DNA from: Niveibacterium microcysteis
GTDB lineage: Bacteria; Pseudomonadota; Gammaproteobacteria; Burkholderiales; Rhodocyclaceae
DNA length: 64,000 nucleotides
Direction of reading: 5' to 3'
Assembly (NCBI RefSeq): GCF_017161445.1
Contig: NZ_CP071060.1
Coordinates: 3,658,001 to 3,722,000 of the forward strand
Shown: positions 12,244-22,118 of the stretch, piece after piece
Position numbering within the stretch: the stretch's first letter is position 1
How the letters are laid out: each line of letters begins with the position of its first letter
Program-made: the position numbers and the translations under genes
The notes under the pieces: generated by a model
What the model was told of the DNA's origin: nothing
The model's input: only the letters and a program-made list of their open reading frames with translations
Databases searched by the model: none

Positions 12244-13272
12244 TCAGGCGGCAAATTTCTTGGTGTACTCGACCAGCTGATCGACCTTGGCCCGCGCTGC
12301 GCCGCTCGCGATCGTCGCGATGGCGCGCTCGACGCCATCGGCCAGCGAGTCGGCAATGCCCGCCACGTACAGGCTGGCACCGGCGTTGAAGGCAACGATA
12401 TCGCGCGCCGCAGGCAATTTGCCGGTCAATGCGCCCAGCAACATCTCACGTGAATCCTCAACGGTCGCAGCACGCAAGGCCGAGGCTGCGTGCAGCGGCA
12501 GGCCGACATCTTCCGGCGACAAGCGGTACTCGCGCACCACACCGTCGCGCAACTCGCCCACCATCGTCGGCGCGGAGATCGACAGCTCGTCGAGACCATC
12601 CAAGCCATGGACGATCATCACATTGCGTGCGCCCAGGCGCTGCAGCACCCGTACCTGGATGCCGACCAGATCGGGGTGGAACACGCCCATCAACTGATTC
12701 GCCGCATTGGCCGGGTTGGTCAACGGGCCGAGGATGTTGAAGATCGTCCGCACGCCCAACTCGCGCCGTACCGGGCCTGCGTGTTTCATGGCCGCATGGT
12801 GGCTGGGCGCGAACATGAAGCCAACACCGATGTCGTCGATGCAGGCGCCCACCTGTTCCGGGCTCAGCGATAGATTCACACCGAGCGACTCGAGCACGTC
12901 GGCCGAGCCGGACTGCGACGACACCGAACGACCGCCATGCTTGGCCACACGCGCCCCAGCGGCGGCGGCAACGAACATCGCACCGGTTGAAATATTGAAG
13001 GTGTGCGCGCCATCACCACCGGTGCCGCAGGTATCGACCAGGGTCTGCACATCGGATTTCAGCGGCACCTTGGTTGCGAATTCGCGCATCACCGTGGCAG
13101 CGCCGGCGATTTCACCAACGGTTTCCTTCTTCACCCGCAGTCCGGAAATGATGGCCGCGATCATCACCGGCGACACCTGGCCGGACATGATCTGCCGCAT
13201 CAGATCGACCATCTCCTCATGGAAGATCTCGCGGTGTTCGATGACGCGTTGAAGGGCTTCTTGGGGGGTCAT
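12244..13272 (-). CDS. trpD: Anthranilate phosphoribosyltransferase
   Basis: It transfers phosphoribose from PRPP to anthranilate. Conserved motifs are [17 protein letters not shown] (PRPP/Mg binding), [40 protein letters not shown] and [14 protein letters not shown]. Three possible starts exist; the ATG at 13272 ([20 protein letters not shown]) is chosen because a GGAGG lies exactly six bases before it, while the ATG at 13278 would sit directly on that GGAGG and the GTG at 13287 would include it in the coding region. This gives 342 aa, the usual length. A strong hairpin lies between trpG and trpD. Confidence 0.96.
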
Positions 13273-13291
13273 GCTCATCCTCCGCACATGT

Positions 13292-13320
13292 GAATGAAGC
13301 GGCGCTCGGCCGCTTCATTC
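13292..13320 (-). other. Intercistronic hairpin trpG-trpD
   Basis: GAATGAAGCGGC and GCCGCTTCATTC form a perfect 12-bp stem with a 5-base loop, in the 56 bases between trpG and trpD. There is no T-run on the minus strand, and the trpD ribosome-binding site starts only about 10 bases after it. It may stabilise or process the mRNA, or set the TrpD level. Confidence 0.7.
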
Positions 13321-13328
13321 ATGTGCTT

Positions 13329-13892
13329 TCACATGTCGAGAAAGTTCTTCAGCAACTGGTGGCCACCTTCGGTCAGGATCGACTCCGGGTGGAACTGCAC
13401 GCCTTCGATCGGCAGCGTGCGATGCCGCACGCCCATGATCTCGCCGTCCTCGGTCCACGCCGTCACTTCCAGGCAATCGGGGCACGTTTCACGTTCGATC
13501 GCCAGCGAGTGGTAGCGCGTTGCCGTGAAGGGATTGGGCAACCCGCGGAACACACCCTTGTCGGCATGCGAGATAGGCGAAGTCTTGCCGTGCATCAGGC
13601 GCTTGGCATGCACGATCTTGCCGCCGAAGGCCGCGCCGATCGACTGATGCCCAAGGCACACGCCGAGGATCGGCAGCTTGCCGGCGAAGTGCTTGATCGC
13701 CGGCACCGAAATGCCCGCCTCGGCCGGCGAACACGGGCCGGGGGAGACGACGAGCTTCTCGGGCTGCATCAGCTCGATCTGCTCGACGGTGATCTGGTCA
13801 TTGCGAAACACCCGCACATCGGCACCGAGTTCGCCGAAGTACTGCACGAGGTTGTAGGTAAAGCTATCGTAGTTGTCGATCATCAGCAGCAT
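13329..13892 (-). CDS. trpG: Anthranilate synthase glutamine amidotransferase subunit
   Basis: It supplies ammonia from glutamine to TrpE. It is a class I amidotransferase of 187 aa with the nucleophile in [12 protein letters not shown], the His-Glu pair in [14 protein letters not shown] and the oxyanion motif [13 protein letters not shown]. The N-terminus [20 protein letters not shown] is canonical; an AGGAG seven bases before the ATG at 13892 decides the start over longer in-frame alternatives that overlap trpE. Such subunits often also serve PabB in folate synthesis. It is 11 bases downstream of trpE. Confidence 0.96.
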
Positions 13893-13903
13893 GGCAGGGC
13901 TCC

Positions 13904-15391
13904 TTATTCGAATCGGGTGTCGAGGCCGCGTTCGGCCATCTCGGCAGCGCGCAAGACCGCACGGGCCTTGTTCTGCGTTTCCTGCCATTCCGATTCGGGA
14001 TTGGAGTCGGCAACGATGCCGGCCCCCGCCTGTACATGCAGCTGGCCGTCCTTGAGTACTGCGGTGCGGATCGCGATTGCGACGTCCAGCTCGCCATCGA
14101 AGCCCAGATAACCAACGGCACCCGCGTAGATGCCGCGCTTGACGGGCTCCAGCTCGTCGATGATTTCCATCGCACGGACCTTCGGCGCGCCGGACACGGT
14201 GCCCGCTGGAAACGCGGCGCGCAGCACGGCAAGTGGCGCAGCGCGCTTGTCTTCGAGTTCCTTGAGCTCGCCCTCGACGTTCGAGACGATGTGCATCACA
14301 TGTGAGTAACGCTCGACGATGAACTGCTCGGTGACCTTGACGGTACCGGTAGCAGCAACGCGGCCGACATCATTGCGACCGAGATCGAGCAGTTGAAGAT
14401 GCTCCGCGCGCTCCTTCTCGTCGGCGAGCAGATCCTTCTCCAGCGCCAGATCCTCTTCATGTGTCGCGCCGCGTTTGCGCGTGCCGGCGATCGGCCGCAC
14501 GGTGACGGTGCCGTCTTCGAGCTTGACCAAGATCTCCGGCGAAGCGCCGACGACATGGAAGTCCTCGAAGTTGAAGTAGAACATGTACGGGCTGGGGTTC
14601 AGCGCGCGAAGACTGCGATAGAGCGCCATCGGACTGGCCGCGAAGGGCTTGCTCATGCGCTGCGACAGCACCACCTGCATGATGTCGCCATCGACGATGT
14701 ACTGCTTGGCGCGCCCGACCGCCGCCTTGAAAGCCTCTTCGCCGAAGCTGCTGACCGCTTCGGCCGGCTCGACCGACACATCCTGCGGAATCGCGACCGG
14801 CTCACGCAGCTTCGCAAGCAGCTCCTTCAGGCGACGCTGCGCGCGCTTATAAGCGCCGGGCACTTCCGGCTCGGCATACACCACCAGCGTCAGCTTGCCG
14901 GAAAGGTTGTCGACAATCGCGATCTCTTCGGACAGCAGCAAAACGATGTCCGGCACGCCGAGCGGGTCCTTCGGCTCATGCTTGGCCAGCTTGGGCTCGA
15001 TGTAGCGCACGGTGTCGTAGCCGAAAGCGCCGACCAGCCCGCCGCAGTACCGCGGCAGGCCATCACGCGGCGGCACCTTGATCCGCTGCATGAATTCGCC
15101 AATGTAGTTGAGCGGATCACCGTAGTCGCGACGCTCGACGAGGCGATCATTGGTCAGCAGCAGGGCCGAGCGGCCGTACACCTCGATGCGGGTGTTGGCG
15201 CGCAAGCCGATGATGGAGTAGCGGCCAAAGCGCTCACCGCCCTGCACGGATTCGAGCAGGTAGGTCCAGGACTCGTTGGCGAGCTTCAGGTAGATCGACA
15301 GCGGCGTATCGAGATCGGCAAAGGTCTCGAGCGTCAGGGGGATGCGGTTGTAACCCTGTTGGGCCAACGCGAGAAATTCGGATTCGGTCAT
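13904..15391 (-). CDS. trpE: Anthranilate synthase component I
   Basis: It converts chorismate to anthranilate with TrpG. The 495-aa protein has the N-terminal regulatory domain with the Trp-feedback motif LLES ([16 protein letters not shown]) and the chorismate-binding domain with [46 protein letters not shown] and [20 protein letters not shown]. Two adjacent ATGs exist at 15394 and 15391; the second has the better five-base spacing from GGAG and gives [19 protein letters not shown], the familiar N-terminus. The 234-base gap from gph holds a possible leader peptide. Confidence 0.95.
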
Positions 15392-17526: not shown

Positions 17527-17559
17527 ACGCGGCCGCGGCCCTAACCGCGCCGCATGGCC

Positions 17560-19371
17560 TCAGGCGAGGCGCAACGTGGCTATCGCGTGCAGCGACTCGG
17601 GCGCCGTCTCGTCGCCGATCAGACGAACGACCACAGGCACGCCGGCCGACTCCGCCGCCGCCGCAACGGCCGCCACGGCGCGGCGGTGCAGGTCGTCTCC
17701 TGCGGCGGAGACGCTGACGTAGTGCAAGGCACTGCCAAGCAAGGTTTCAATTCTCAAACGCACCGGGTCCGACACCCGCAGAGCGCAGCGCAAACCGCGC
17801 GCAATCAGATCCGACAGCGCTTCAGGACGCACCATGCCTGCGTCGAACTCGAGGACCAGCGTTGCGCCCACCGCGCCAATGCGCGCCACGACGCCACGAC
17901 AGGCCGTTACGAAGCGAGGGTCGCTGAGACTGGACCGCGCAGGCGCCATCGCCCACACACCGCCTGCGGCGCCCTCCGCAGCCACCGCGAGGCGCTCAAG
18001 CAACTGAAGATCCGCATCCAGCGCCAAACCAGCATCCGGCGCCACAAGGTCCGGCAGCAGAACATCACGCGCCTGGTCTCGCGACCACGCCGCGGCGTGC
18101 AGGCGTCGGGTCCAGATCTGGCCGTCCGCACCGACGAGCACGTCCCAGTGGGCCCCAAGCGCACCCTCGGCCATGGCAGCACGCCAGCTCGCCTCCGCCG
18201 CGTCCTGCTGCGCCACCAACTCATCGAACTCAGGTGCGGCGAAGCGGAAGCAGTTCTTACCCGCATTCTTCGCGCGGTACATGGCCACATCGGCAATCGC
18301 AACCAGGGCGTCGTCCTCGCCGTCATGCGGATACACGGCAACGCCGATGCTGGCCGCTACGCGCAACAGATGATCGCCGTATTCGATGACCTCGGTGGCA
18401 CAGGCCACCAGCTTGTAGGCCAAGCGTGCCGCCGCGAGCGGATCGGCCAGCTCGTCGGCGATGACCACGAATTCGTCGCCGCCCAGGCGCGCAACGGTAT
18501 CGCTCTCGCGCACCGCGGCAACGAGACGGCTTGCCACCGTGCGCAGCACCTGGTCACCCGCAGCGTGGCCATGCTGATCGTTGACCGGCTTGAAGTTGTC
18601 CAGATCGATGAAAAACAACGCGAAGCCAGCCCGGTTGCGCCGCGCCTTGGCTTGAATGGCGTTGAGCGCCTGACGGAAGCCCGTCCGCGTAAGAAGGCCG
18701 GTGAGCTCATCGATGCCGGCCAGCGAGCGGCTTTGCGCATGCGCCTCGCTTTGCGCGGCGGTCTGGCGCACGAGTTCAGCGCGCGCCTCGGCGAGCAGGG
18801 CAGTCTGCCGGCTGATGTCCTCGCGCAAGCGATTGCTGCGCCGGCTCGCGACGACGCCGACCACCAGCACCGAGATCAATACCGCAAGCGCGATCCAGAC
18901 CGCCATCGGCTGGCGATCGACGGCCTGCCGCGCCACCGCGATACCGGACTTGATCGGCATCGCGCCCGGCTCGGCGGCGTATAGCTTGGGGTCGCCGGCG
19001 ATGACCCAGACCTCGCGGTTGAATTCCTCAAGCGGCAGCAGCTGATCCGTCGACACGCTCTTCTCGGCGCCTCGGTGGATGATGAAGTTCAGCTGCGTCG
19101 CCTCTTCTGCAATCGGCACATCAAAATACACGCCGAAGTCAGTGGTGCCGGCCGGCTTCAGCGGCTCGGTCCAGCGGGTGTCCTCGCCAAGGTTGTGCCC
19201 CTCACCCCAGACATGAAGCCCCCAACCGTTGTAGAGGCCATCCGCGCGGTGGAAGTGAATCCGCGCAAACCCTTGCGGCGCCACCGCCCACGCGGGAACG
19301 GACGCGCCCAATACCGCCAGCACCAGCGCTAGCCAGGCAAGAAATCTGAGTGGCATTGGGCGTCGTGACAT
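17560..19371 (-). CDS. Membrane diguanylate cyclase with PUD sensor and degenerate EAL tail
   Basis: The 603-aa protein reads as: signal peptide or anchor (1-29); a periplasmic domain (about 35-130) with FARIHFHRADGLYNGWGLHV and NFIIHRGAEK that resembles the pullulanase-associated PUD (CBM41-like) fold; a membrane segment (157-175); a GGDEF domain (about 215-380) with intact GGDEF at 297-301, DxLT (DELTGLLTR) and an I-site RESD at 288-291. The remaining 200 residues follow an EAL domain outline (ending DETAPESLHAIATLRLA, matching the usual E-T-eql-L tail) but lack EAL, DDFG and metal ligands. It should make c-di-GMP in response to a periplasmic, perhaps carbohydrate, cue. TGATG couples it to argJ. 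Confidence 0.85.
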   Translation of the reverse strand: MSRRPMPLRFLAWLALVLAVLGASVPAWAVAPQGFARIHFHRADGLYNGWGLHVWGEGHNLGEDTRWTEPLKPAGTTDFGVYFDVPIAEEATQLNFIIHRGAEKSVSTDQLLPLEEFNREVWVIAGDPKLYAAEPGAMPIKSGIAVARQAVDRQPMAVWIALAVLISVLVVGVVASRRSNRLREDISRQTALLAEARAELVRQTAAQSEAHAQSRSLAGIDELTGLLTRTGFRQALNAIQAKARRNRAGFALFFIDLDNFKPVNDQHGHAAGDQVLRTVASRLVAAVRESDTVARLGGDEFVVIADELADPLAAARLAYKLVACATEVIEYGDHLLRVAASIGVAVYPHDGEDDALVAIADVAMYRAKNAGKNCFRFAAPEFDELVAQQDAAEASWRAAMAEGALGAHWDVLVGADGQIWTRRLHAAAWSRDQARDVLLPDLVAPDAGLALDADLQLLERLAVAAEGAAGGVWAMAPARSSLSDPRFVTACRGVVARIGAVGATLVLEFDAGMVRPEALSDLIARGLRCALRVSDPVRLRIETLLGSALHYVSVSAAGDDLHRRAVAAVAAAAESAGVPVVVRLIGDETAPESLHAIATLRLA

Positions 19372-20612
19372 CAGGAGCGGTAGTCAGCGTTGATCTTCAC
19401 GTAGTCGTAAGAGAAGTCGCAGGTCCAGACCGTAGCCGCCGCGGGGCCGCGGGCGAGATCGATACGCACGGTGATCTCTTGCGATTTCATGATACGTGCA
19501 CCGTCGGCCTCGCGATAGGCCGCCGCGCGGCCGCCCAGCTCAGCAACGAGGACCTCGCCGGCAGCATCGCCCAGCCAGACGCGCAGTCGATCGACATCGA
19601 GGTCCGCAACGCCGGCGTAGCCGATTGCCGCCAGGATGCGGCCGAGATTCGGGTCGGAGGCAAAAAAGGCGGTTTTGACCAACGGTGAATGCGCAACGGC
19701 GTAGGCGACCTTGCGGCATTCCTCCCGGTTCGCGCCGCCCGCAACCGCGATGGTCATGAACTTGGTGGCGCCCTCGCCATCGCGCACGATCGCCTGAGCC
19801 AGCCACACCGCCACCTCGATCACGGCAGAACGCAGCGCGGCATAGTCGGCGGAGGCCGCGTCAGTGATTTCTGCGGCGCCGGCCGCCCCGGTAGCGATCA
19901 GGATGAAGGAATCGTTGGTGGAGGTGTCGCCATCGACGGTGATGCTGTTAAAGGACAGATCCGCCGCCTCACGCACCAACTGCTGCAACAACGCTTGCGA
20001 GACAGCCGCATCGGTCGCCATGAAGCCGAGCATAGTCGCCATGTTTGGCTTGATCATGCCGGCGCCCTTGCTGATGCCGGTAATCGTCACCGTCTTGCCG
20101 CCCAACTCGATGCGCCGGGACGTGGCCTTCGCGATCGTATCGGTCGTCATGATACCGTGCGCAGCGTCATGCCAGCCATCGGCACGCAAGTCAGACTGCG
20201 CAGCCGGCAGCCCGGCCACCAGGCGATCCATCGGCAGATGCTCAAGGATCACGCCAGTCGAGAACGGCAGTACCGACGTCGCCGCAATACCCAGGCGCGA
20301 GGCGACCGCCTCACAGGTTGCGCGCGCGTTCTGCAAACCCAGCGCGCCGGTACCCGCATTCGCGATACCCGTGTTGATGACCAAGGCGCGAATCGCCGAG
20401 CCCGCCTCCAGGTGAGCCTGGCAGACCTGAACCGGTGCCGCGCAGAAACGGTTCTGCGTGAACACGCCGGCAGCGCGGCTGCCTTCCGCCAATTCGATCA
20501 GGGTCAGGTCGCGACGATCTGCCTTGCGGATACCTGCCTGCGCGACGCCCAGTCGGACGCCGGCGACCGGCAGCAGTTCAGAGGCGATGGGCGGATTCAG
20601 GCAAACAGGCAT
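19371..20612 (-). CDS. argJ: Bifunctional ornithine acetyltransferase / N-acetylglutamate synthase
   Basis: It recycles acetyl from N-acetylornithine to glutamate in arginine synthesis. The 413-aa precursor cleaves itself before a Thr nucleophile in the motif [20 protein letters not shown], which is intact, giving alpha and beta chains. Other motifs: [29 protein letters not shown] and the C-terminal [19 protein letters not shown]. The start at ATG 20612 agrees with family N-termini. The secA, HDOD, argJ order on one strand is seen in betaproteobacteria; the stop overlaps the start of the diguanylate cyclase. Confidence 0.96.
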
Positions 20613-20672: not shown

Positions 20673-22118
20673 TCAGGCACGTGCCCCCCGAGCCGCTACG
20701 TGTTCGAAGCCCATCGACGCCTGCTGCACGAAATGCAGCACCCCAGTCGCATCCTCTTCGGACAGCACCGCATCCGCCTTGATGCGATCTGCGTAGAACG
20801 CGCCGATCGTCCGACCATGCACCACGATTGGGGCGATAACGAACGGTGGCACGCCCCCGGCACGAGTCAGACGCTCGAGGCGCACCGGCGCCTCGAAGGC
20901 ATTGGCAACGACGAAACTCTGCTGGCGCGCCACCACGGTATTGACCAGCTCGCCGGGGCTGCCATCGAGCGCAAACTGAAATGCCCGCACCAGCGCATCA
21001 GCGCCGGGCCCCAAGCCGGCCTTGCCAACCAGGTGCTGGCGATCCGGTGTCAGCATCGCAAACAGGGCGCGATCCATGCCGATACCGCGGAAGATCCCCT
21101 CCAGCGCCAGCGTCAGCACGTCGTTCAAATTCGGTTTGCCCGCGATCAGCATCGAAAGGTCGCGCAGGATCTTGAGTTGCAACAAGGGGTTCGGACCGCT
21201 CGAATCCTCATCTTCCTGCACCGTCACGGCGCCGCCGCTGCGCGGCAGAGGAATCAGTCGCGCCGCCTCATGCGCCCCGTAGTTCACCGCAGCCTGCGCA
21301 GCGGCAACGGCGTTATCGGTGATCAGCGGCAGGATTTCGTCCAGGGGCCGGTCGAGATGCTTCGAGATCTGGTCGAGCACCTGTCTTGTGGCGGGCGCCT
21401 CCCAGCCTCCCTCGGCCTGCCGCGCGAGCGAGTGTGCCAGCGCAACCGATTTCTCGCGGTCCCCGCCCCGCTCGCCTTGTTCGATGACACTGGTCAGCAA
21501 GCCGCCCAAACGCCAGTCCTTCACCAAGCCCAAGGTAATCTGGCGCAGTCGATAGCCCAGCACGTTCTGCTCGGCCACTTCGGCGGGCACGCCGGTTGAC
21601 AGCGTGCTGTCGAGCGACTGGGCCGCCTCATCGCCGAAGCACCAGAAGGCCATCTCGCCTACACGGGCGAGCAAGGCGGAAATGAAGACTTCTTCCGGGT
21701 TCGGGTCTGCCTTCAGCGCGGCCAGGGTGCGGGCTTGAACCGCAGCATGAAAGGCGCGCGCCATCTCGGTCACGACGCGCTCCCGCACGCCGCCGCGCAG
21801 CAAGGCGTCGATCAGCACGAGCGACAGCGCCATGTTGGCGACCGCGTCAAAACCAAGTACCACAAGGGCGCGGCTGACCGTGCTGATGTGGGCGCGCGAG
21901 GGATTGAAGTACGCGCTGTTGGCGAGCTTGAGCACCTTGGTCGTCAGCGCGGCGTCCTGCAGGATGATCGAAGCCAGCGCCGAGGCCGACGCCTTCTCGT
22001 CGTCCGCGACTTCGCGGATCGAGTCCACGGTGCGCCCGAACGCCGGCATGTCGCGTTCGCGTATGCGCGCGACAAAGCCCTGGGCCCCAAGGCGGCGAGC
22101 GTCCTGCAGCGTGGTCAC
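20673..22118 (-). CDS. HDOD domain protein with C-terminal GAF-like domain
   Basis: The 481-aa protein has an HDOD domain in the first 280 residues (ASIILQDAALTTKVLKLANS, the PSRAHISTVSRALVVLGFDA pattern) in which the HD dyad is replaced: ALLARVGEMAF instead of HDIG, so no phosphohydrolase activity is expected. A GAF-like domain follows at about 310-475 (LNDVLTLALEGIFRGIGMDR, then VIAPIVVHGRTIGAFYADR). HDOD proteins act in signalling, often with c-di-GMP pathways, and their partners are usually unknown. One of three HDOD genes in this window. It lies between secA and argJ on the same strand. Confidence 0.88.
   Translation of the reverse strand: MTTLQDARRLGAQGFVARIRERDMPAFGRTVDSIREVADDEKASASALASIILQDAALTTKVLKLANSAYFNPSRAHISTVSRALVVLGFDAVANMALSLVLIDALLRGGVRERVVTEMARAFHAAVQARTLAALKADPNPEEVFISALLARVGEMAFWCFGDEAAQSLDSTLSTGVPAEVAEQNVLGYRLRQITLGLVKDWRLGGLLTSVIEQGERGGDREKSVALAHSLARQAEGGWEAPATRQVLDQISKHLDRPLDEILPLITDNAVAAAQAAVNYGAHEAARLIPLPRSGGAVTVQEDEDSSGPNPLLQLKILRDLSMLIAGKPNLNDVLTLALEGIFRGIGMDRALFAMLTPDRQHLVGKAGLGPGADALVRAFQFALDGSPGELVNTVVARQQSFVVANAFEAPVRLERLTRAGGVPPFVIAPIVVHGRTIGAFYADRIKADAVLSEEDATGVLHFVQQASMGFEHVAARGARA

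What the first reader, a model, noticed from the sequence alone, without database searches (positions are those of the whole stretch)
17560..19371. Diguanylate cyclase with a PUD/CBM41-like periplasmic sensor and a decayed EAL tail
The N-terminal 35-130 region looks like the pullulanase-associated (PUD) carbohydrate-binding fold, joined by one membrane segment to an intact GGDEF with I-site. After it come about 200 residues that follow the EAL outline but lack EAL, DDFG and metal-binding residues. Seen: motif presence and absence. Inference: sugar- or glucan-linked control of c-di-GMP, with the EAL remnant perhaps binding c-di-GMP or partners.
Basis: partly seen in the sequence, partly recalled or inferred. 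Interest (0 to 1): 0.7.

Follow-up and report, generated by a model that had tools for sequence, protein, structure and literature searches.

The report
Starch-binding sensor on c-di-GMP enzyme
This gene encodes a membrane protein that joins a starch/glycogen-binding domain outside the inner membrane to an apparently working enzyme that makes the signal molecule c-di-GMP, followed by a leftover signal-degrading domain that has lost its active site but is still maintained, so it may let the bacterium adjust its lifestyle to the presence of alpha-glucans.

Summary
The gene is on the minus strand (17560-19371, 603 aa): a signal-peptide-like start, PUD/CBM41 at 36-131 (Pfam E=6.1e-25), one clear internal membrane segment, intact GGDEF with RxxD I-site, and a tail without a Pfam match.

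The tail models as an EAL domain (pLDDT 91.6); the 50 PDB rows listed are EAL proteins. It keeps 1 of 9 catalytic/metal positions but evolves under constraint (dN/dS 0.058).

The architecture is rare. The 26 family rows form one GGDEF clade. 3 of 26 keep a complete EAL site and 22 of 26 keep five or fewer residues, against 0 of 162 other GGDEF-EAL proteins. Seven PUD residues are invariant in 26 of 26. The genome also has a maltodextrin uptake cluster and a pullulanase, both with PUD domains.

Best reading: a periplasmic alpha-glucan sensor driving a diguanylate cyclase, with a DgcE-like non-catalytic EAL module. No binding or activity was measured. New variant of a known kind.

The parts
17560..19371 (-). 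whole gene, 603 aa: PUD-TM-GGDEF-degenerate EAL
19282..19371 (-). residues 1-30, signal-peptide-like start (hydrophobic stretch followed by AWA)
   Evidence: hydropathy; sequence; no signal-peptide predictor was run
18979..19266 (-). PUD / CBM41 domain, residues 36-131
   Evidence: Pfam PF03714 E=6.1e-25; the whole-genome search gives the same place; CBM41 structures 2j43, 2j44, 2j71 matched
18835..18915 (-). transmembrane segment, about residues 153-179
   Evidence: hydropathy; continuous helix 157-217 in the model
18721..18837 (-). signalling helix between membrane and GGDEF, residues 179-217
   Evidence: AlphaFold model
18253..18717 (-). GGDEF diguanylate cyclase domain, residues 219-373
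   Evidence: Pfam PF00990 E=1.1e-40
18499..18510 (-). I-site RESD, residues 288-291
18469..18483 (-). GGDEF motif, residues 297-301
17563..18234 (-). degenerate EAL domain, about residues 380-603
   Evidence: hhalign to degraded and then to ordinary EAL domains; model and fold searches; residue table
19371..20612 (-). argJ, directly upstream; its stop overlaps the start of this gene by one base (TGATG)
   Evidence: Pfam ArgJ E=5e-144

Best explanation
An inner-membrane diguanylate cyclase whose periplasmic PUD/CBM41 domain binds alpha-glucan chains (maltodextrins released from starch or glycogen by the cell's pullulanase and amylase, and let in by the LamB-type porin). Binding changes the arrangement of the dimer through the single transmembrane helix and the long signalling helix, and so changes c-di-GMP synthesis by the intact GGDEF domain. 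The I-site gives product feedback. The C-terminal EAL domain no longer degrades c-di-GMP; it is kept as a structural or regulatory module that tunes oligomer formation or binds partners, as reported for the degenerate EAL domain of E. coli DgcE. Shown here by sequence or model: the domains, their order, the intact cyclase motifs, the loss of EAL catalytic residues, the EAL fold, purifying selection, and co-residence with alpha-glucan genes. Inferred: ligand identity, the direction of the effect, the mechanism across the membrane, and the EAL module's role.
For: PUD and GGDEF well above Pfam cut-offs. GGDEF and RxxD in 26 of 26 family rows, and Y47, W50, W55, W67, H99, K104, D109 in 26 of 26. 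In 71 other PUDs, K104 in 71, W67 in 71, H99 in 71, D109 in 63. dN/dS against L042: PUD 0.025, GGDEF 0.008, C-terminal domain 0.058. The fold of the C-terminal domain is EAL, and homology runs through partly degraded relatives (E=7.8e-9, then E=3.5e-40). Own genome: LamB, MalK-type ATPase, binding protein, MalF, a second permease, a small PUD protein and a GH13 amylase in one cluster, and a 1288-aa pullulanase with two PUD domains. 7 of 7 genomes with an intact PUD-DGC also have a PUD-bearing frame of at least 1,000 aa. Precedent for a regulatory degenerate EAL on an active GGDEF: PMC6510439, passages read.
Against: No binding or enzyme assay. That the conserved residues form the glucan site is recalled from T. 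maritima CBM41 work; no call confirmed it. T. maritima CBM41 shares Y47, W50, W55, K104 and D109 but has Trp at 53, Glu at 67 and Asn at 99. The tail's profile match to ordinary EAL is modest (E=7e-5, probability 63), and its match to the three intact EAL domains of its own family is not significant (E=0.0063, probability 5.9). The gene lies in a housekeeping cluster (secA-HDOD-argJ-apaG-rpe-HAD-trpE), not beside glucan genes. 13 of the 16 order-sample genomes with a PUD frame of 1,000 aa or more lack the cyclase. One genome with the family (G068) has no LamB match, and two MAGs (G637, G638) hold no other PUD. One genus member (G593) has only fragments of the gene while keeping a pullulanase-size PUD frame, so it is dispensable. 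The domain arrangement in the full-length model is unreliable (pTM 0.54).
Confidence: 0.55

Rival explanations
1. The PUD domain is not a sensor of soluble maltodextrins but an anchor: it holds the cyclase near a polymer (the cell's own glucan, cell-surface glycan) or near the secreted pullulanase and small PUD proteins, and the cyclase responds to crowding or another cue.
For: CBMs generally work as tethers to polysaccharides (recalled). The genome holds three stand-alone PUD proteins of 145, 151 and 166 aa that could share or compete for the same ligand.
Against: A single PUD at an inner-membrane, periplasm-facing position should not reach external polymer; soluble chains are the alpha-glucans expected there (inference).
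Confidence: 0.2
2. The C-terminal domain still works as a c-di-GMP receptor, like LapD or FimX, and feeds signal back to the cyclase.
For: The fold match to LapD bound to c-di-GMP is the best by Z (19.4); the domain is under purifying selection.
Against: One of nine checked catalytic/metal positions kept in all 14 rows of the Niveibacterium-type clade. LapD and FimX pair such an EAL with a degenerate GGDEF (recalled), whereas here GGDEF is intact and has its own I-site. Phosphodiesterase entries tie within 1 Z unit (5m1t 19.1, 8arv 19.1).
Confidence: 0.1
3. Neutral leftover: the EAL tail is a dispensable remnant and the PUD has no present ligand; the gene is on its way out.
For: EAL residues are lost in a graded way across the family.
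Against: dN/dS 0.025, 0.008 and 0.058 for PUD, GGDEF and C-terminal domain against L042; seven invariant PUD residues in 26 of 26 rows; a confident, complete fold.
Confidence: 0.12

Closest known systems
CBM41 / PUD domains of pullulanases (Thermotoga maritima 2j71, streptococcal 2j43/2j44, the window genome's own pullulanase)
   Same: Same Pfam family over the whole domain, same conserved Lys, Asp and Trp (W55) positions
   Different: There they are attached to GH13 enzymes; here the domain is the periplasmic input of a c-di-GMP enzyme. T. maritima differs at positions 53, 67 and 99
E. coli DgcE (MASE1-PAS3-GGDEF-degenerate EAL)
   Same: Membrane-bound, active GGDEF followed by an EAL domain lacking the key residues; published role is to counteract oligomers (PMC6510439, passages read)
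   Different: Input domains are MASE1 and PAS, not a periplasmic carbohydrate-binding domain
LapD / FimX degenerate GGDEF-EAL receptors
   Same: Fold of the EAL module
   Different: Here GGDEF is intact and the EAL has lost 8 of 9 checked positions
PaMorA and PA0575 tandem GGDEF-EAL
   Same: Tandem GGDEF-EAL; best full-length Foldseek matches (4rnf E=1.4e-27, 5m3c E=1.8e-26)
   Different: Different sensor domains; their EAL domains keep the catalytic motifs (recalled)

Membership tests
PUD / CBM41 | Pfam PF03714 above curated cut-off over the domain's length | tested here: met
   88.4 bits against 25, profile 2-96 of 97
PUD / CBM41 | conserved Trp, Lys and Asp positions shared with T. maritima CBM41 | tested here: met
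   W55, K104, D109 in 26 of 26 family rows and in the T. maritima chain; that these contact the sugar is recalled
PUD / CBM41 | binds alpha-1,4/1,6-glucan | not testable with these tools
   needs purified protein
GGDEF diguanylate cyclase | GGDEF motif and domain above cut-off | tested here: met
   139.4 bits against 23.8; motif
GGDEF diguanylate cyclase | RxxD inhibitory site five residues before the motif | tested here: met
   RESD 288-291, GGDEF 297-301
GGDEF diguanylate cyclase | makes c-di-GMP | not testable with these tools
   needs assay
EAL phosphodiesterase | Pfam EAL match | tested here: not met
   no PF00563 up to E=10, none at this place in the genome search
EAL phosphodiesterase | catalytic and metal-binding residues | tested here: not met
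   1 of 9 kept
EAL phosphodiesterase | EAL barrel fold | tested here: met
   EAL fold, hence a homolog but not an enzyme of that kind
DgcE-type cyclase with regulatory degenerate EAL | intact GGDEF plus EAL lacking key residues | tested here: met
DgcE-type cyclase with regulatory degenerate EAL | MASE1 and PAS input domains | tested here: not met
   only PUD, GGDEF and a sub-threshold LapA_dom in Pfam; it may work like DgcE but is not a DgcE
LapD/FimX-type c-di-GMP receptor | degenerate GGDEF | tested here: not met
   GGDEF intact
LapD/FimX-type c-di-GMP receptor | EAL retains c-di-GMP contacts | tested here: inconclusive
   8 of 9 checked positions lost, but other contacts were not checked
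7TMR-DISM sensor | DISMED2/7TM domains | tested here: not met
   no such Pfam match; one clear internal TM segment

The most novel reading that the evidence does not exclude
A polysaccharide-binding module of starch-degrading enzymes has been taken over as the direct periplasmic input of a c-di-GMP cyclase, so that the products of the cell's own pullulanase and amylase set the sessile/motile state; after this fusion the neighbouring EAL lost phosphodiesterase activity step by step and became a non-catalytic regulatory module.
Probability: 0.4. Interest if true: 0.68.

Novelty: new variant of a known kind. Interest (0 to 1): 0.52.

Why it matters
Few ligands of periplasmic c-di-GMP sensor domains are known (recalled). 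Here the sensor belongs to a family with a defined ligand class (alpha-glucans), so the input can be tested at once with commercial maltooligosaccharides. The family also offers a graded series of EAL domains (9, 7, 5, 4, 3, 1 and 0 of 9 residues kept) on otherwise alike proteins, a natural experiment on how an enzyme domain may turn into a regulatory one.

Tried and rejected
Rejected: 7TMR-DISM as the sensor (no Pfam match). Rejected: a real gene on the other strand; the 476-aa plus-strand frame 17554-18984 has no Pfam match, probably a GC-rich shadow. Rejected: an active EAL phosphodiesterase. Led nowhere: the homology search with residues 30-140 scored only 30 candidates and gave 8 proteins, so it says little on how widespread PUD signalling proteins are; the profile search listed the same 16 PUD-GGDEF proteins as and no new one among its best 120. 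Promoter/terminator scan: no promoter-like site (0.7 expected) and one terminator-like site (4.1 expected), uninformative. One broad paper search returned unrelated papers. The sugar-contacting residues of CBM41 could not be confirmed in an open paper (listing; passages of three papers).

Counts and what was left out: the family tables use 24 and 26 rows. L043 and L039 were left out as the same genes as P0005 and L091; L044/L133 (broken) and L066 (frame ends after the membrane segment, 258 aa) were left out. P0001, P0002 and L042, P0003 and L130, or P0013 and P0015 are near or full duplicates in the tree columns, so rows are not independent. For the Niveibacterium-type rows the EAL columns rest on a sequence alignment that is uncertain there. 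The 71 other PUDs are the 80 loci minus 9 (L042-L046, L066, L076, L091, L096); 70 of the 71 ring a crude GH13 motif, L090 does not; 135 of the 215 confirmed relatives were not kept and not seen. One search's patterns selected for W50, L52, H53 and W55 in one pattern and G80, Y82 and D84 in the other, so those columns are not independent evidence in that set. The background was 184 listed proteins: 1 without a motif and 21 with tails under 200 aa were dropped, 162 used; it is a similarity-ranked list, not a random sample. dS is near saturation (1.0 overall for L042, 1.3 for L043; Nei-Gojobori); against L043 dN/dS is 0.21, 0.22, 0.14 and 0.21 for PUD, linker, GGDEF and C-terminal domain (0.29 for the signal stretch). 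Rooted by other GGDEF domains the intact-EAL clade is basal and one loss suffices; but the node that separates L045/L046 is weak (36/37), and the PUD+GGDEF trees put them with the intact clade (96/91, 96/92; midpoint root), so one to a few losses are all possible. In one search, G639 and G640 repeat G509 and G571.

Full report
What is there. The finding lies on the minus strand: one open frame of 603 aa from 19371 down to 17560. hmmscan against Pfam gives PUD (PF03714) at residues 36-131 with E=6.1e-25 and 88.4 bits (cut-off 25), and GGDEF (PF00990) at 219-373 with E=1.1e-40; no EAL match is listed up to E=10. The PUD also matches solved CBM41 structures (2j43 E=8.8e-13, 2j44 E=1.2e-11, 2j71 E=2.2e-8). 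Hydropathy shows a hydrophobic start (windows from residues 5-14), one internal segment (windows from 153-161) and a marginal stretch at 566-567 inside the modelled barrel. The start is followed by AWA, a typical signal-peptidase site, read from the sequence; no predictor was run. So the PUD should face the periplasm and the GGDEF the cytoplasm (inference). The cyclase motifs are whole: GGDEF 297-301 and RESD 288-291; both motifs (GGDEF and RxxD) are present in 26 of 26 family rows.

Not simply rotting. Between the window gene and its close relative L042, dN/dS by Nei-Gojobori is 0.025 for PUD, 0.008 for GGDEF and 0.058 for the C-terminal domain. The tail changes faster than the cyclase but is constrained. 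Synonymous distance is near saturation, so these are rough values.

The family. One search listed 16 PUD-GGDEF proteins besides the window's own; a wider profile search listed the same 16. A PUD-only scan of the GTDB species genomes found 215 confirmed relatives and kept the best 80. Of these 80, seven encode PUD and GGDEF in one open frame (L042, L043, L045, L046, L076, L091, L096); L044 is a broken copy, L066 ends after the membrane segment, and the other 71 lack a GGDEF motif in the frame, 70 of them with a crude GH13 motif. Named hosts are Niveibacterium, Chitinimonas, Albitalea and a few MAGs, mostly Betaproteobacteria (class recalled). A GGDEF tree with 50 other proteins puts the 26 family rows on one side of a branch (SH-aLRT 99; 100/99 after dropping three long rows), consistent with a single fusion. 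Among the 26 rows 3 keep all nine EAL residues, 1 keeps seven, and 22 keep five or fewer (5, 5, 4, 4, 3, 0, 0, 0 and fourteen with 1). In 162 other tandem proteins from the same searches 150 keep nine, 7 keep eight, 4 keep seven, 1 keeps six, none five or fewer. Rooted by other GGDEF domains the intact clade is basal, though the next node is weak. The second Asp of DDFG and the Glu of EGVE are lost in each of the 23 non-intact rows, which suits an early loss of catalysis followed by further decay in separate lineages (inference).

Distribution and neighbourhood. One search shows 7 genomes of the own genus: 4 have the argJ-linked gene intact (G000, G405, G509, G571), G463 has a divergent PUD-GGDEF-EAL (3 of 9 residues) elsewhere and only about 80 bases between argJ and apaG, G593 has fragments, G542 has no PUD match. 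Over the family sample 7 of 249 genomes and 2 of 68 genera have any PUD; over the order sample 17 of 399, of which 3 have the cyclase (G000, G068, G112). The order secA-HDOD-argJ-gene-apaG-rpe-HAD hydrolase-trpE is kept in L130, L131 and L134, and in L133 around the wreck (families of the window genes). The argJ stop and the start codon overlap as TGATG in the window and in L130, L131 and L134, which suggests translational coupling, so any glucan response would be at the protein level (inference).

Why alpha-glucan. In 26 of 26 family rows the positions Y47, W50, W55, W67, H99, K104 and D109 are invariant; in 71 other PUDs K104, W67 and H99 are kept in 71 and D109 in 63. T. maritima CBM41 shares Y47, W50, W55, K104 and D109 but not H53, W67 or H99. 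That the Lys, Asp and aromatic residues form the sugar site is recalled. PMC7410926 (passages) states that CBM41 binds alpha-1,4 and alpha-1,6 linked substrates. The genome has five further PUD matches: two in a 1288-aa pullulanase (PUD twice, Pullulanase_N2, CBM48, a weak GH13 match just under its cut-off, pullulanase C-terminal domain, CBM20), one in a 151-aa protein between a permease and a GH13 amylase in a cluster with LamB, a MalK-type ATPase, a solute-binding protein and MalF, and two in stand-alone proteins of 145 and 166 aa. The 7 of 7 genomes with an intact PUD-DGC also have a PUD frame of 1,000 aa or more; of the seven locus genomes five have a long PUD frame besides the cyclase (854 to 2401 aa; two of the five repeat G509 and G571) and two MAGs do not. 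Against a tight link, 13 of the 16 order-sample genomes with such a long frame lack the cyclase, and G068 has no LamB match.

How it most likely works. A dimer in the inner membrane samples maltodextrins in the periplasm with its PUD domain; the helix from 157 to 217 carries the change to the GGDEF pair. The published analogue for the tail is E. coli DgcE, where the degenerate EAL lacks the key residues, inhibits output and counteracts oligomers (PMC6510439, passages). The full-length model does not fix domain arrangement (pTM 0.54). [quoted passage not shown]

In print. Full-text searches of the held library gave no paper with 'diguanylate cyclase' and 'CBM41', 'GGDEF' and 'pullulanase-associated', 'diguanylate cyclase', 'maltodextrin' and 'periplasmic sensor', or 'PF03714' and 'GGDEF'. 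Searches with looser terms returned listings in which I saw no such protein named in titles or abstract starts. The library lacks most subscription papers, so this shows only absence there.

Verdict. It is a new architecture built from known parts: new variant of a known kind, with a sharp and cheap test of its ligand.

Noticed in passing
L010:7741-8196 (G000:C1:2072740-2073195); similar in L135 (Albitalea) and L041 (G120): Small secreted-looking PUD-only protein (151 aa) inside a maltodextrin uptake cluster, between a permease and a GH13 amylase. In Albitalea a PUD frame also follows a permease and precedes a GH13 frame, and in G120 it follows MalF and a second permease. Function unknown; perhaps a periplasmic glucan-holding protein.
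   Followed up: partly
L007:7859-8359 and L008:7585-8022: Two more stand-alone PUD proteins (166 aa, lipoprotein-like start; 145 aa) in the same genome; no glucan gene was recognised next to them in the ORF lists, which were not annotated in full.
   Followed up: partly
L009:6087-9953 and 12287-14362: Pullulanase with two PUD domains, CBM48 and CBM20 lies about 2.3 kb from a type II secretin gene, reminiscent of pul systems (recalled).
   Followed up: partly
window 20673-22118: HDOD-GAF protein between secA and argJ; kept at 72-96% identity in 5 of 6 genus relatives examined (L130, L131, L133, L134, L141), not in G542 (best match 24% identity).
   Followed up: partly
L133:6300-7103 (same contig as L044): In one genus member the PUD cyclase is reduced to fragments while neighbours are 94-99% identical to the window.
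   Followed up: yes
L141:5182-5262 and L132:6098-7999: G463 has only about 80 bases between argJ and apaG but carries a divergent PUD-GGDEF-EAL gene elsewhere, beside a LysR-type regulator and an OHCU decarboxylase gene.
   Followed up: partly
L076:3110-5128: A PUD-GGDEF-EAL gene with 7 of 9 EAL residues in a MAG labelled Spirochaetales, far from the other hosts; could be transfer or misbinning.
   Followed up: no
P0122, P0123: Proteins of 457 and 356 aa that read as three PUD-like repeats, with PF03714 as the only precomputed Pfam domain.
   Followed up: no
whole genome G000: 67 GGDEF and 23 EAL matches: a c-di-GMP-rich genome.
   Followed up: no
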